Source: a virus
Reading direction: 5' to 3' (one strand)
Length of the DNA stretch: 64,000 nucleotides
Virus record (IMG/VR): IMGVR_UViG_3300034073_001700
Location: 56,143-120,142 of that record
Each line of letters begins with the position of its first letter. Within the stretch, counting starts at the first letter, position 1. The notes beneath the pieces are model-generated. The model was not told where the DNA came from, searched no databases, and worked only from the letters and a program-made list of their open reading frames with translations. Of the stretch, positions 441 through 15,435 are shown piece after piece. Made by a program: the position numbers and the translations under genes.

Positions 441-984
441 ATTTGAAAATGTTTTTACTAAAGAGCAACTAAAAACAATTAAAGAAGTAATTAGTTCTTC
501 TGAAATAGACCAAATAAATACAGAATTAGGAAGATTACAATATAAGTCACCTTTGGATTTTCCATTTGATTTATTAAATGAAATTAATTATTTAATTTTT
601 AAAAATTTTAACAACTTAGCATTAGGCCCTGTTTCGGTAGTAGAATATAGTGCAAAATATGGTAAGCCAAATTTGCCAGTACATTACGATCATGATTCAA
701 GTGACCTGGTATTTAATTTTCAACTGGAATCAAACACATCTTGGGATATTGGCATAGATAAAACTGTTTATAGTTTAAAAGATAATGAGGCTATCCTATT
801 TAATCCAAATAAATACACTCATTGGAGACCGCATAAAACCTTTAAGGATGGTGAATATGTTAAGATGATATTCTTTAGGTTTCATAATCCAACAGAAATA
901 TCAGATTATTCTCACCTTGATTTGAGTCAAGAGAATGAAATTTTTAAAGAAGTTCGTGAATTTAGGGATAGCCTGGGCACTTGA
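427..984 (+). CDS. 2OG-Fe(II) oxygenase-like protein
   Basis: A 185-aa protein with the spacing of a double-stranded beta-helix dioxygenase. An HxD pair is visible at H86-Y-D88, a distal His candidate at H132 (or H136) and a basic residue near the end of the fold (R151) that could hold 2-oxoglutarate. These proteins couple oxidation of 2OG to hydroxylation of a protein, nucleic acid or small molecule; the substrate cannot be told. It overlaps the upstream gene by 14 nt. The -35 of the next promoter overlaps its stop codon. A cupin without catalytic activity is the alternative. Confidence 0.6.
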   Translation: MEIIKFENVFTKEQLKTIKEVISSSEIDQINTELGRLQYKSPLDFPFDLLNEINYLIFKNFNNLALGPVSVVEYSAKYGKPNLPVHYDHDSSDLVFNFQLESNTSWDIGIDKTVYSLKDNEAILFNPNKYTHWRPHKTFKDGEYVKMIFFRFHNPTEISDYSHLDLSQENEIFKEVREFRDSLGT

Positions 985-1010
985 CAAATACCCCCACTCT
1001 GTTCTATAAT
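981..1010 (+). promoter_or_regulatory. Sigma70-type promoter
   Basis: TTGACA at 981-986 and TATAAT at 1005-1010 with an 18-bp spacer, both perfect consensus hexamers. It overlaps the stop codon of the oxygenase gene and drives the 53-aa gene and the secreted-protein gene. It is the only promoter seen here with a full -35; most others rely on an extended -10. Confidence 0.8.
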
Positions 1011-2862: not shown

Positions 2863-3546
2863 ATGGAAAAAATATATTTAGATGAAGACAAAAAGGTTTG
2901 GATTATTGAAAACTTCCTTACCGAAGAAGAACTAAAATGGTTTAAAGAGCAAACCGACGATGAAAATGGGTGGTACCCAACAATGAGGTCTCCATATAGA
3001 AATATATTAAATAAATTTTTAAATATCGTTCCAAGATATGACGACACTGGTAACATTATATTCCCAGATGAAAACTCTCAAGTATTACAACTAGAAATTT
3101 TTACTAAACCTGGCGGAATTTGGGATAGACTTGAATCTGTATTGCCACCAGTATATGGAAGACATGCTACATTACAATCTTTTAAGTATATGACAGATGA
3201 AGAAATAAAGGAAGCAGTAAACGATACATTATTAAGAGAATATAAGATTAAAGTTGAAGATATAGACTTTGCTATGTACTGGCATCAAGATCCAGATGAA
3301 GAGCAGAACATAATTTGTTCTTTTAGTCTTTACCTAAACGACGACTTTGAAGGTGGAGAATTGGAATTTGCAGAAGTTCCAATCAAACTAAAGCCAAAGG
3401 CTGGGACCTTGGCCGTAATACCTGGCGGACATAAGTATCGACATAGGGTAAATAAGGTGTTAGGCCCTAATTCACGTCATACCCTATATGGAAACTCTTT
3501 TATAGATGCTTCTAAGATACCTCAAAGCACAAAAGATGACTGCTAA
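2863..3546 (+). CDS. 2OG-Fe(II) oxygenase (prolyl-4-hydroxylase type)
   Basis: A 227-aa protein with a complete Fe/2OG site: H141-Q-D143, distal H194 in the YRHRV segment and R205 in SRHTLYG, together with the typical strand FEGGELEF between them. The family hydroxylates proline or other residues of peptides, or free substrates. Its start has no ribosome binding site and lies 6 nt after a -10 element, suggesting leaderless translation. It directly precedes the peroxide cassette. The substrate is unknown. Confidence 0.82.
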   Translation: MEKIYLDEDKKVWIIENFLTEEELKWFKEQTDDENGWYPTMRSPYRNILNKFLNIVPRYDDTGNIIFPDENSQVLQLEIFTKPGGIWDRLESVLPPVYGRHATLQSFKYMTDEEIKEAVNDTLLREYKIKVEDIDFAMYWHQDPDEEQNIICSFSLYLNDDFEGGELEFAEVPIKLKPKAGTLAVIPGGHKYRHRVNKVLGPNSRHTLYGNSFIDASKIPQSTKDDC

Positions 3547-3551
3547 AAGAG

Positions 3552-3560
3552 TGTTATAAT
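3552..3560 (+). promoter_or_regulatory. Extended -10 promoter of the Gpx-like gene
   Basis: TGT-TATAAT at 3552-3560, no recognisable -35. Unlike the leaderless genes it is followed by a leader with AGGAGG (3577-3582), 6 nt before ATG 3589. Confidence 0.65.
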
Positions 3561-3588
3561 AATCCCATAACCCCACAGGAGGTAATTG

Positions 3589-4404
3589 ATGAAATCAATT
3601 TACGATATCGAATTGGAATCAGCCGAAGGCGTTCCACACTTTATGCAACAGTTTAAGGGCAAAGCGATCATGCTTATCAACACAACAGTTGGTTGTGGAA
3701 ATGCTGGTCAAATGCAACCCATTCAATGGATACAGGAAGACCTTGCGGGAGAAGATTTCTCCGTTGTTGCAATCCCAACAAATGATTTCTGTGGCCCAAG
3801 CATTACAAAAGGCAAGTGGTCTAAAGGAATTGAAAAAGGTTTAGACTCAAAGAACTACGGAGAAGATGTATACGGAGTTACATTCCCATTCTCACAAATG
3901 ATTACATCTAATCCAGCAGAGATTCCATTAGAGGCTCCATGGCTTGGAAAAGGCCCAGGACTTAACGGAAATGGAGAGCCTTTTGGAGAAAGACACGAAC
4001 TTTATTTAGAAGTTTCAGAACAAATTAAAGCAATACAGTTAAAGAAAATAGAACTTGGTATTGTAGAAAGGACAGATTACGAATCACGTTATTTAAATGA
4101 ACACAACGGTGGCTTGTATATGAACTGTAACTTTGAAAAATATTTAATTGATAAGGACGGATATGTTGTTAAGCACTATCCTTGCACAACATTAAATTAT
4201 GATGTTGAAAAGACACTCAAAGAAGACCTTTTAGAAAAGGGAATTTTTGCAAAAATGGGTCCAGATAGATCCCCTTCTATTTTTGACGAAGAAAACAGAG
4301 TTATCCGTGACCACATTCAGCGTCTTATGAATGGAGAAAAATCAATTATTAATCCTAGTAATACGCTAACAGAAAAGTCTAAAGAACCACTGACAATCTC
4401 ATAA
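3589..4404 (+). CDS. Divergent glutathione-peroxidase-like thiol peroxidase
   Basis: A 271-aa protein in the thioredoxin-fold Gpx family. The peroxidatic Cys motif is NTTVGCGNAG (C36), and the second and fourth family motifs are recognisable as IPTNDFC (64-68 region) and NCNFEKYLID. Compared with the usual Cys-Gln-Trp-Asn tetrad, Gln is Asp and Trp is Cys here; Cys and Asn remain. About 100 extra residues are inserted relative to a 160-aa Gpx. AGGAGG is spaced 6 nt from ATG 3589; a TTG at 3586 is too close. Likely reduces peroxides with a thioredoxin-type donor, or has a changed substrate. Confidence 0.7.
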   Translation: MKSIYDIELESAEGVPHFMQQFKGKAIMLINTTVGCGNAGQMQPIQWIQEDLAGEDFSVVAIPTNDFCGPSITKGKWSKGIEKGLDSKNYGEDVYGVTFPFSQMITSNPAEIPLEAPWLGKGPGLNGNGEPFGERHELYLEVSEQIKAIQLKKIELGIVERTDYESRYLNEHNGGLYMNCNFEKYLIDKDGYVVKHYPCTTLNYDVEKTLKEDLLEKGIFAKMGPDRSPSIFDEENRVIRDHIQRLMNGEKSIINPSNTLTEKSKEPLTIS

Positions 4405-4416
4405 AAATATAAACTA

Positions 4417-4462
4417 TTTTCTCCTATGGTATACTTAATATATAGCATAGGAGAAAATTTTT
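4417..4462 (+). promoter_or_regulatory. RBS-sequestering hairpin with a -10 element in the loop
   Basis: A perfect 12-bp stem, TTTTCTCCTATG (4417-4428) with CATAGGAGAAAA (4446-4457), 17-nt loop. The right arm contains the AGGAG site of the gpx start at 4463. TGG-TATACT at 4427-4435 would start RNA near 4442, after the left arm, leaving the site free. Read-through RNA from upstream would fold and hide it. The run of five T after the stem means it could also act as an intrinsic terminator of the upstream gene. Confidence 0.7.
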
Positions 4463-4894
4463 ATGAGCATATATGATTTATCATTTACTGATAACAATAA
4501 AAATGTTATACAGTTAAAGAATTTTGAAGGAAAAAATATATTAATAGTCAACACTGCAAGTCATTGTGGAAATACCCCACAGTATGCAGATTTACAAAAA
4601 ATACAAAGTGATTCGTTGGTTGTTATTGGCTTTCCTTGCAACCAGTTTGGTAATCAGGAGCCAGGAACCAATGATGAAATTAAGGCTTTTTGTACAACTA
4701 ATTACGGTGTAACCTTCCCAGTGTCTGAAAAGGTAGAGGTTAATGGTCCTAACGCTCACCCTATATATAAGTACTGCAAAGAGGCTACTGGAGTAAGTAA
4801 TATTGGATGGAACTTTGAGAAGTTTTTAATATCTGCTGATGGGTCCATCTCTCATTATCCTACATCTTGCCCAGTATCTGATATAATAAAATAA
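4463..4894 (+). CDS. gpx: Glutathione peroxidase family protein (Cys type)
   Basis: A 143-aa single-domain Gpx. Motifs in order: NTASHCGNTPQY with peroxidatic C35 in the Sec position, FPCNQFG with Gln61, and GWNFEKFLI with Trp and Asn, giving the complete tetrad. C78 in AFCTTNYG is a good candidate resolving Cys, which points to thioredoxin rather than glutathione as reductant; Actinobacteria generally lack glutathione. Reduces H2O2 and lipid peroxides in the cytoplasm. It sits between a divergent Gpx-like gene and katG, and a hairpin covers its ribosome binding site. Confidence 0.9.
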   Translation: MSIYDLSFTDNNKNVIQLKNFEGKNILIVNTASHCGNTPQYADLQKIQSDSLVVIGFPCNQFGNQEPGTNDEIKAFCTTNYGVTFPVSEKVEVNGPNAHPIYKYCKEATGVSNIGWNFEKFLISADGSISHYPTSCPVSDIIK

Positions 4895-4904
4895 CTACTA
4901 GTAG
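4879..4904 (+). promoter_or_regulatory. katG promoter with palindrome at the start point
   Basis: TGA-TATAAT at 4879-4887, inside the last codons of gpx. The predicted start point (about 4894) coincides with a perfect 10-bp palindrome CTACTAGTAG at 4895-4904, placed where a repressor would block initiation. The ribosome site GAAAGAAG follows. Confidence 0.5.
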
Positions 4905-4915
4905 AAAGAAGCATA

Positions 4916-7000
4916 ATGTCAGAAGCAAAATGCCCATTCACAGGCAATAGCCTAACAAACGAAGGAACATATAATAAGGATTGGTGGCCAAACCAGTTAG
5001 ATTTGTCTCCTTTAAGAAAAAATTCAGAAAAATCTGATCCTATGGGAGAAGACTTTGACTACGCTAAAGAGTTTAATAGTTTAGATCTTGATACTCTTAA
5101 GGCTGATATTGAGGAAGTTATGACTACCTCGCAAGATTGGTGGCCTGCCGATTACGGTAACTACGGCCCACTATTCATTCGTATGGCATGGCACTCTGCA
5201 GGTACATACAGAACAACTGATGGTCGTGGTGGCGCAGGAGAAGGCCTACATAGATTTGCTCCACAAAATTCATGGCCAGATAATGGTAATTTAGATAAGG
5301 CTCGAAGACTTCTTTGGCCTATTAAGAAGAAGTATGGAAAGAAGATTTCATGGGCAGACCTCATGATTCTTGCTGGTAACGTTGCTTTAGAAAACATGGG
5401 CTTTAAGACTTTCGGTTTTGGTGGAGGTCGTGAAGATGTTTGGGAAGCAGATGATACTTACTGGGGTAGTGAAAAGGAATGGCTTGCAGACAATCGCTAT
5501 AGCGGAGATCGTGAGTTAGAGAATCCTCTTGCTGCAGTTCAGATGGGTTTGATTTATGTAAACCCTGAGGGTCCAAATGGTAATCCAGATCCACTTCTAT
5601 CTGCTCGTGATATTCGTGAGACATTTGCTCGTATGGCAATGAACGATGAAGAGACTGTAGCACTTATTGCTGGAGGACATGCATTTGGTAAAGCACATGG
5701 TGCTGGAGATCCTAAGCATGTTGGTCCAGAACCAGAAGGTGCACCAATTGAAGAACAAGGTCTTGGATGGAAAAATTCATTTGGAAAGGGTAATGCAGAA
5801 GATACTATTACAAGTGGTATCGAAGGTGCATGGACTCCAACTCCAACAAAGTGGGATAACACCTACCTTAAACTATTATTTAAGTATGACTGGAAGCAGG
5901 TAAAGAGTCCTGCTGGTGCTACACAATGGATTCCCACAGATGAGTCTGCTGCTAATTTAGTTCCAGACGCACACGTTGAGGGTAAATTCCATGCTCCAGT
6001 TATGACAACTGCAGACTTAGCACTTAAGTTTGATCCAGAATATGAAAAGATTTCAAGACGATTCCTTGAAGACTTTGACTATTTCTCTGATCAATTTGCT
6101 CGTGCCTGGTTTAAGTTGACGCATAGAGATATGGGTCCAATTGCAAGGTATCTTGGTAAAGAGGTTCCTGTAGAAGAACTAATTTGGCAGGACCCAGTTC
6201 CTGTATCAATTACAAAGGATATTGATGTAGAGAGTATTAAGAATAGAATTAAATCTTCTGATATTCCTATGTATCATTTTGTCTATACGGCATGGGCTTC
6301 TGCGTCTACCTTCCGCAAAACAGATAAGCGTGGTGGTGCAAATGGCGCTCGTATACTACTTGAGCCACAGCGTAGTTGGGAAGTAAATGATAACTCAATA
6401 ATTTCTAGCGCTGTTGATTTCCTTAGCACGGTTCAAAAAGAACATATGATTTCTATGGCAGATTTAATTGTTCTTGCTGGATGTGCAGCAATCGAAAAGG
6501 CTTCTGGAGAAAGAGTTAAGGTTCCATTTACTCCTGGTCGTGGAGATGCAACTCAAGAGCAGACCGATGTTGAGTCTTTCAAAGTTCTTGAACCTATCGC
6601 AGATGGCTTTAGAAATTATTTAGGAAAAGGCACTACAGTTCCTTCAGAAATTTTGTTGGTAGAGAAGGCTAATATGCTAAATCTAACCCCAGTAGAGATG
6701 GTTGTTCTTCTTGCTGGAATGAGAACATTAGTGATTGATACACTAAATAATGGCTATCTGATTAGTCTTTTGTCTGGACAAATTTCTTGGAAGCAAACAT
6801 CTATTGATAATTTCCAAGGATATGTCAACGGAGAACTAGTTGGTAATGCAACTCGTGTTGATCTGATTACTGGATCAAACTCAGAACTCCGTGCTATTGC
6901 AGAGGTATATGCTTCTGACGATGCAAATGATAAGTTTGTGTCTGACTTTGCTAAAGCATGGAATAAGGTAATGATGCTTGATAGGTTTGATGTCAAGTAA
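4916..7000 (+). CDS. katG: Catalase-peroxidase KatG
   Basis: A 694-aa bifunctional haem enzyme that dismutates H2O2 and has peroxidase activity. The N-terminal active domain is complete: distal R89, W92, H93 (RMAWHSAG), Y214 and M240, which together with W92 would form the Met-Tyr-Trp adduct needed for catalase activity, and proximal H255 ([11 protein letters not shown]). The C-terminal non-haem domain is also full length, so the gene is intact and slightly shorter than the common 720-750 aa. It has its own extended -10 and follows two Gpx-type genes. An intact katG is not a standard phage gene and implies host origin. Confidence 0.97.
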
Positions 7001-13610: not shown

Positions 13611-13895
13611 CTATATCCAGTACTTAAGTATAGCAGTTATGGCTAAAATTGTCCAGAGTATATTAAACCAAATTAGTGTGGGTATTGTTTTTACAGTAGA
13701 AGACCATATTAGCATTAGGCTTGAAGCGAGGGCAAAAATATAAAGCCACCACCATTGCTTATTAAATAATAGTCCTGGGATAATTATTACTGCCTTGGTC
13801 ACAAAAGCAAAAAATTCAACAATATTAGGTTTATTCCAGTAGGATTTATTGCCCATGGTTTTTAATGCATAAAGCCAATCTAATTTAAAATTCAT
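13611..13895 (-). CDS. Multi-pass small membrane protein
   Basis: A 94-aa Trp-rich protein with about three hydrophobic helices (residues 27-45, 46-62, 70-90). Its start overlaps the 3' end of the halogenase gene by 11 nt, so it is translated from the same message. It could anchor or transport the halogenated product, but nothing in it identifies a family. Confidence 0.65.
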   Translation of the reverse strand: MNFKLDWLYALKTMGNKSYWNKPNIVEFFAFVTKAVIIIPGLLFNKQWWWLYIFALASSLMLIWSSTVKTIPTLIWFNILWTILAITAILKYWI

Positions 13896-15435
13896 TTAAT
13901 TGCTCCAAAAATTTTCTATGCCCAATACATTCAAATTTTTTATAGTCTTGAACACTTGTAAAATAATCATAGTTATCACAAGCATCTTTATATTTTTGAG
14001 AATAGTTTATATATTTTTCAGCAAGACTCTTATTTATTTTATTAATTCCTAAACCAACAACGAGCCAACTATCAAATGACCAATATGTTCCACTATCATG
14101 TTTGTTTGGAAATCTCTCCTGCCACAAATCTATCTTATTTTTTAAACTGTCTGGCGCATTGTTATAAGAAAATTTTGACCAAAACTCTGTATCTTTTCTG
14201 TCTCCCATATAATGAAAATAAACAAACTCTGCTATATCATTATTCATTTTGACTACATCTTTATTAAATTCTTTTCTTAAATTATCTGTGTTGCCAAACA
14301 ACCACTCTGGATTAGAGAATAATCTTTTTAACATATTTATGCTCGCCCAAATAGAAGTAGCCTCTAATGGCTCTATAAAGTTTGATGCAAGACCTATTGC
14401 AACACAGTTATTAACCCAAGGAGTCTCATAACATCCAGCACTAAATTTAAATCCACCCTTATCTTTACGTGGATATGATGGCTCATACCCTAAATATTCT
14501 TCTATCTCTTGTACTGCTTCAGACTCTGATATCATAGATGAATCATATACATACCCGCATCCAAATCTAGACTGTAAAGGAATCTTCCACATCCAGCCAT
14601 ACTTCATTGCTATTGCCTCAGTATATGGGGGAATTTCTTCTGTCATCTCAATAAAAAATGGTAGTGCTGAATCTACTGGAAGGAAATCACTATAACTCTT
14701 CCACTCTGATTTAAATAGTTTGCCTATGATTAACCTATGAAATCCACTGCAATCAAATACAAAATCACATGGCTCCATACTTCCATCTTCAAATGAAACA
14801 CTTTGTATATTATCATTGTAGTCTAGTGATATATTATTAATTGTTTTTTCAATTATCTTTATACCACGATCTATACCTATTGACTTTAGCCTATCGGCAA
14901 ATTTAGAGGCGTTAAAATGTATGGAGTGGGACGCTAAATTATCATAATCTGAATTTAAATTTTTAGTATAGGAATTTTTATCAACGAAAGGAACCTTGTT
15001 ATCTTCTGAAATTTTTTCTATAAAGTCAACTGGTCCAAACTTATTGTTTTTTATAATGCTAGAAATTATAAGAGGATGGGTTAAAAGTCCAGCAGACCCC
15101 GCATCGAATCCTGCTGATGTAGATTGCTTTACCGAAAAGGCATGATAATAAAAATCACCATCGTTGTTCCAGTTAGTAAACTTAATTCCATTTTTAATAG
15201 TGGTATCACAGTGCTGTACTAGATCATGCAATGGTATATCTAAACTATTAAGAAAGTCTACTATTTGTGGGGTAGATCCTTCTCCTGCACCTAAAATGCC
15301 AATATCCTTAGACTCAACCAATGTAACATTAAGATCTGGATATATCTTGTTTATATATAGTGCGGTCAACCAACCAGCGCTACCGCCTCCAACTACCAAA
15401 ATATTTTTGATGCTAATCTTCTTTACCACCCTCAC
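13885..15435 (-). CDS. Flavin-dependent tryptophan-halogenase-family protein
   Basis: A 516-aa enzyme. The FAD-binding VVGGGSAGW (14-22), the GEGSTP element (51-56), a Lys in the halogenase position (K81, in TTIKNGIKFTNW) and the diagnostic WMWKIP (281-286, WxWxIP) are all present. With FADH2, O2 and a halide such enzymes make hypohalous acid, which Lys passes to an aromatic substrate. They need a flavin reductase, normally the host's. A cyanophage relative (VirX1) is a proven iodinase with broad substrates, from memory. Start is GTG at 15433-15435, inside the upstream gene; nearby alternative starts exist. Confidence 0.9.
   Translation of the reverse strand: MRVVKKISIKNILVVGGGSAGWLTALYINKIYPDLNVTLVESKDIGILGAGEGSTPQIVDFLNSLDIPLHDLVQHCDTTIKNGIKFTNWNNDGDFYYHAFSVKQSTSAGFDAGSAGLLTHPLIISSIIKNNKFGPVDFIEKISEDNKVPFVDKNSYTKNLNSDYDNLASHSIHFNASKFADRLKSIGIDRGIKIIEKTINNISLDYNDNIQSVSFEDGSMEPCDFVFDCSGFHRLIIGKLFKSEWKSYSDFLPVDSALPFFIEMTEEIPPYTEAIAMKYGWMWKIPLQSRFGCGYVYDSSMISESEAVQEIEEYLGYEPSYPRKDKGGFKFSAGCYETPWVNNCVAIGLASNFIEPLEATSIWASINMLKRLFSNPEWLFGNTDNLRKEFNKDVVKMNNDIAEFVYFHYMGDRKDTEFWSKFSYNNAPDSLKNKIDLWQERFPNKHDSGTYWSFDSWLVVGLGINKINKSLAEKYINYSQKYKDACDNYDYFTSVQDYKKFECIGHRKFLEQLNEF

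What the first reader, a model, noticed from the sequence alone, without database searches (positions are those of the whole stretch)
4417..4462. T4-lysozyme-like switch in front of gpx: promoter in the loop of an RBS-masking hairpin
Seen: a perfect 12-bp stem whose right arm contains the AGGAG of gpx, and TGG-TATACT at 4427-4435 whose start point (about 4442) lies beyond the left arm. Long transcripts from upstream therefore fold and hide the site; short transcripts cannot. The same logic controls the T4 e gene (early RNA masked, late RNA free). The five T after the stem add a possible terminator role.
Basis: partly seen in the sequence, partly recalled or inferred. Interest (0 to 1): 0.78.

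Follow-up and report, generated by a model that had tools for sequence, protein, structure and literature searches.

The report
Phage promoter inside RBS-masking hairpin
A phage antioxidant gene carries its own promoter inside an RNA hairpin that hides its ribosome-binding site, so in prediction only messages started right there can be translated; the trick is known from phage T4, but here it is backed by paired evolutionary changes in relatives and recurs in many unrelated phages.

Summary
A perfect 13-bp stem (4416-4428 / 4446-4458) buries the AGGAGA of a glutathione peroxidase gene (gpx, ATG 4463), with TGG-TATACT (4427-4435) between the arms. Chance does not give this. Transcripts starting at or before 4416 fold so that opening the start region costs 16-20 kcal/mol; one starting at A4442 costs about 3.7. 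The start point is supported by many sister-phage genes where the same -10 lies exactly 6 nt before ATG (leaderless). Where a gpx paralogue lies directly upstream, gpx has either no promoter and no hairpin, promoter plus hairpin, or a leaderless promoter. The terminator idea is not supported; T4-like late timing is untested. The mechanism type is known (T4 e, I-TevI); gene, phage group and promoter type appear new. IMG/VR pattern scans with scrambled controls (61 v 6 and 4; 59 v 8 stretches) indicate that an anti-Shine-Dalgarno element in a sigma70-like promoter recurs widely in phages.

The parts
4416..4428 (+). left arm (anti-SD), ATTTTCTCCTATG
   Evidence: covaries with the right arm in relatives
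4446..4458 (+). right arm CATAGGAGAAAAT, contains the Shine-Dalgarno AGGAGA (4449-4454)
4427..4435 (+). extended -10 promoter element TGG-TATACT between the arms
   Evidence: TGrTATAmTTA conserved in all hairpin-bearing relatives; same motif 6 nt before ATG in leaderless sister genes
4442..4442 (+). predicted transcription start (7th base after the -10 hexamer)
   Evidence: inference from the sharp 6-nt -10 to ATG spacing in leaderless genes of the same phage group
4458..4462 (+). T run in the SD-ATG spacer; not a terminator by our evidence
   Evidence: kept in hairpin-less L004/L036-type relatives
4463..4894 (+). gpx, glutathione peroxidase (PF00255), the controlled gene
3589..4404 (+). upstream GPx-family paralogue; source of read-through RNA
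   Evidence: PF00255, E 9e-9
3553..3561 (+). TGTTATAAT, likely promoter of the paralogue, a candidate source of long transcripts
   Evidence: 28 nt before its ATG; consensus match only
981..1010 (+). TTGACA-18-TATAAT, another candidate upstream promoter of the co-directional run
   Evidence: consensus match only

Best explanation
The element is a translational insulator built into a promoter. RNA entering gpx from upstream promoters carries the left arm, folds into the 13-bp hairpin and cannot load ribosomes. RNA started by the extended -10 promoter inside the hairpin begins at about 4442, lacks the left arm, exposes AGGAGA and is translated. gpx is thereby uncoupled from the paralogue upstream and made only when its own promoter fires. 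Shown here: the stem, its conservation with paired changes, the conserved -10 between the arms, predicted masking. Inferred: the start site (strongly), masking in vivo, and the purpose (independent, perhaps later or stress-linked, expression of gpx).
For: Chance excluded. Both arms change together in relatives: T-A to C-G in L008/L012; A-T to T-A and G-C to A-T plus length changes of both arms in L022 and L048; distance between arms 29, 33 or 35. -10 motif constant. Start site rule from leaderless genes (93 matches at exactly 6 nt in related contigs). Opening 4447-4465 costs 16-20 kcal/mol for 5' ends at or before 4416 and 3.7 from 4442. With the paralogue upstream, a gpx promoter is always paired with either the hairpin or leaderless initiation. 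The same layout is enriched at unrelated phage genes over scrambled controls.
Against: No transcription or translation data. No clear -35. The short RNA keeps a weak local hairpin (SD about 30% unpaired). Only six distinct gpx hairpin sequences, so the covariation rests on few events. Hairpin states are scattered on a weakly supported tree, so recombination of leaders is possible.
Confidence: 0.85

Rival explanations
1. The dyad is a DNA operator: a regulator (for instance a peroxide-responsive one) binds two half-sites flanking the -10; the RNA hairpin is incidental.
For: Perfect dyad around a promoter of an antioxidant gene.
Against: Arm spacing changes by 4 and 6 bp between relatives (29, 33, 35), arm sequence drifts while pairing is kept, one pair is G-T; the right arm is always the SD; analogous pairs sit at many unrelated genes.
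Confidence: 0.07
2. The hairpin plus T run is an intrinsic terminator of the upstream gene or an attenuator of gpx.
For: 13-bp stem followed by TTTT.
Against: T run kept where no hairpin exists (L004, L036); stem base is all A-T; most analogous hairpins at other genes lack a T run.
Confidence: 0.04
3. The stem is an RNA processing site (double-strand nuclease) that matures read-through RNA to free gpx; the -10 match is fortuitous.
For: A long perfect stem could be a substrate; not testable here.
Against: Does not explain the constant -10 between the arms nor the leaderless promoters at the equivalent place in sister phages.
Confidence: 0.04

Closest known systems
T4 gene e (lysozyme) leader, also soc and gene 49 (PMC3014915, read)
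   Same: Long upstream transcripts fold and hide the SD; a promoter within the region encoding the 5' strand gives RNA lacking that strand, which is translated.
   Different: T4 uses late promoters of its own late transcription system and the timing is proven; here an extended -10 promoter in an actinophage-like virus, an antioxidant gene, and no timing data.
T4 I-TevI/II/III, segB and Aeh1 mobE hairpins (PMC2988022, read)
   Same: Promoter placed so that its transcript lacks the 5' half of an RBS-sequestering hairpin, inside longer early transcripts.
   Different: Homing endonuclease genes in T-even phages; here a metabolic gene in an unrelated phage group.
Tn10/IS10 and IS200 protection from external promoters (Davis et al. 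1985 and Beuzon et al. 1999, cited in PMC2965389; details from own knowledge)
   Same: RNA entering from outside folds over the translation start while the element's own promoter gives an open message.
   Different: Uses terminal regions of a transposable element and guards against insertion near promoters.

Membership tests
T4 e-type promoter-in-hairpin switch (as a mechanism) | SD paired with an upstream arm in read-through RNA | tested here: met
   covariation
T4 e-type promoter-in-hairpin switch (as a mechanism) | Promoter whose start lies 3' of the left arm | tested here: inconclusive
   Sequence and comparative evidence strong; no mapped 5' end
T4 e-type promoter-in-hairpin switch (as a mechanism) | Long RNA poorly, short RNA well translated | not testable with these tools
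   Only energies computed
T4 late-gene leader (by descent) | Late promoter TATAAATA served by a T4-type late sigma factor | tested here: inconclusive
   The site is TATACTTA with an upstream TG, matching the phage group's general TGnTATAmT motif; presence of a gp55-like factor was not searched
T4 late-gene leader (by descent) | T4-like phage | tested here: not met
   DNA polymerase closest (about 55%) to Streptomyces phages; PHROG hits not T4-specific apart from a UvsX-like recombinase
Intrinsic terminator | G+C-rich stem followed directly by a T run that depends on the stem | tested here: not met
   A-T stem base; T run independent of the hairpin; not listed by the terminator scan, whose loop limit is 8
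Known Rfam RNA family | Score above gathering threshold | tested here: not met

The most novel reading that the evidence does not exclude
Promoters that carry an anti-Shine-Dalgarno word in or next to their -35/-10 spacer, so that only RNA started there can be translated, are a general, repeatedly evolved insulator in phages of several host groups and not a peculiarity of T4 late genes; at gpx the module is interchangeable with leaderless promoters, a second solution to the same read-through problem.
Probability: 0.6. Interest if true: 0.68.

Novelty: new member of a known kind. Interest (0 to 1): 0.55.

Why it matters
Phage genes are packed behind one another and read-through is the rule. A promoter that silences translation from all RNA except its own lets one gene keep its own schedule inside a long operon with no protein regulator and fewer than 50 bases. 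If it is common, predictions of co-expression from operon structure are wrong for such genes, and the module is a compact natural insulator for genetic circuits.

Tried and rejected
Divergent-gene rival (left arm as SD of a leftward gene): rejected; most recurrence families have a co-directional ORF just upstream and the left arm has no leftward start at SD distance. Operator, terminator and processing readings: see rivals. Named phage relatives of the locus: none by DNA, only distant GPx proteins. A named phage for recurrence family L205: none. Search of 399 genomes of one bacterial phylum (that of a Cohnella genome) for the second pattern: 0 matches, but about 1 Gb is underpowered. The layout at other genes of the gpx-bearing phages: only one candidate, L074, not followed. 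The MAFFT alignment of leaders put the arms out of register, so pairs were compared by hand, anchored on CTCC/GGAG. Paper searches for anti-SD elements in promoters found nothing in the held library, which lacks most subscription journals.

Full report
WHAT IS THERE. The window is bases 56143-120142 of a 120-kb virus record. In a co-directional run (2OG oxygenase 2863-3546, GPx paralogue 3589-4404, gpx 4463-4894, catalase-peroxidase-like gene 4916-7000) the 58-nt gap before gpx holds a perfect 13-bp inverted repeat, 4416-4428 / 4446-4458. The right arm contains AGGAGA and TGG-TATACT lies between the arms. Twenty random windows of the same dinucleotide make-up held no perfect stem of 13 bp; the fold has z = -5.1.

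COVARIATION. A search for gpx relatives gave 78 IMG/VR loci. Besides the window, five distinct upstream sequences (L001, L008/L010, L012-L014, L022 group, L048 group) carry SD, left arm and -10 together. L008/L012 change one outer pair T-A to C-G. Anchored on the CTCC/GGAG core, L022 and L048 change A-T to T-A and G-C to A-T on the inner side and shorten the outer side of both arms by one or two pairs; L048 adds inner pairs and has one G-T pair. All other pairs are kept. The -10 core TGrTATAmTTA is constant while the rest of the loop differs. The distance between CTCC and GGAG is 29, 33 or 35, which fits an RNA helix better than two half-sites of a DNA-binding dimer. The number of independent events is small.

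START SITE. In this phage group TGnTATAmT is followed by a start codon at exactly 6 nt in 93 matches, at 7 nt in 7 and at 5 nt in 1 (related contigs, so not 93 independent events), as expected of leaderless transcripts that start at the A of ATG. The same holds at gpx itself in L002, L024/L037 and L045/L046/L052/L057. Applied here, the rule puts the start at A4442, 14 nt past the left arm. This is inference from sequence, not mapping.

MASKING. With 5' ends at 3568, 4300, 4350, 4400, 4410 or 4416, freeing 4447-4465 costs 16-20 kcal/mol; from 4442 it costs 3.7. The other gpx variants behave alike. The remaining 3.7 comes from a weak local hairpin in the short RNA.

NATURAL EXPERIMENT. With the paralogue directly upstream, relatives fall into three states: gap 14-27 nt with neither promoter nor hairpin; gap 58-70 nt with promoter and hairpin; gap 53-54 nt with a leaderless promoter and hence no SD to mask. 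The only relative of this clade with promoter and SD but no hairpin (L320-L322, one sequence) lacks the paralogue upstream, as do the leaderless L045-type. So next to the paralogue a gpx promoter always comes with a device that should keep read-through RNA untranslated. States are scattered on a weakly supported gpx tree; leaderless L024/L037 group closely with hairpin-bearing L008/L012 (100/99), so one has replaced the other recently.

TERMINATOR. The TTTTT before ATG is present in hairpin-less L004/L036-type relatives, so it belongs to the SD-ATG spacer. A terminator role is not supported.

RECURRENCE. Two patterns with explicit controls followed. TCTCCT-(0-8)-TGnTATAAT-(8-24)-AGGAGA-5-ATG: 61 stretches in 25 N-terminal families (about 18 after merging obvious relatives by eye), against 6 and 4 stretches for scrambled left words. 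CTCCTT-(0-8)-TGnTATAAT-(8-24)-AAGGAG-8-ATG: 59 stretches (60 matches, 35 families) against 8 (5 families). In the first set 11 of 18 families extend the required 6 bp by 3 or more pairs (expected 16%, p about 2e-5), and the median SD-opening energy is 11.2 kcal/mol on long v 1.5 on short RNA. Most families have a co-directional ORF just upstream. Genes include a transcription-regulator-like 86-aa protein, a tryptophan halogenase, a thioredoxin, a ring-hydroxylase-like protein, a dual-specificity-phosphatase-like protein and a tetrapyrrole-methylase-like protein. Some hits remain chance-like (6-bp stems, short ORFs), in line with the controls.

COMPARISON. The mechanism type is established for T4 e, soc, 49 and homing endonucleases (PMC3014915, PMC2988022), and protection of Tn10 from external promoters is a related principle (cited in PMC2965389). 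Here it is found in an actinophage-like virus (DNA polymerase 55% identical to Streptomyces phages) with an extended -10 promoter and an antioxidant gene. It works like T4 e; it is not a T4 late leader by descent. Whether it gives T4-like timing is unknown.

Noticed in passing
window 3589-7000: Two GPx-family genes and a catalase-peroxidase-like gene stand in a row in a phage genome, an unusual antioxidant cluster.
   Followed up: partly
window 7101(+), 8926(-), 58888(-); L081-L083; L001-L059: This phage group appears to use leaderless promoters widely: TGnTATAmT exactly 6 nt before ATG at many genes.
   Followed up: partly
window 3553-3589 and relatives: The upstream paralogue itself switches between an SD-led start (27-29 nt after the -10) and a leaderless start (6 nt) among relatives.
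   Followed up: no
L087:1955-2860 (minus strand): A tetrapyrrole-methylase-like gene carries the same promoter-in-hairpin layout with a 19-pair stem, and its product also begins MSIY like gpx, hinting at leader transfer with the first codons.
   Followed up: no
L136, L164: Tryptophan halogenase leaders with full TTGACA, anti-SD in the spacer and stems of 18-20 pairs; the window also has a halogenase gene (13885-15435, minus) whose leader was not flagged.
   Followed up: partly
L063, 100 nt upstream of gpx: A terminator-like hairpin (AACAATG...CATTGTT then T-rich) precedes the gpx promoter in a distant relative, possibly another way of shielding from read-through.
   Followed up: no
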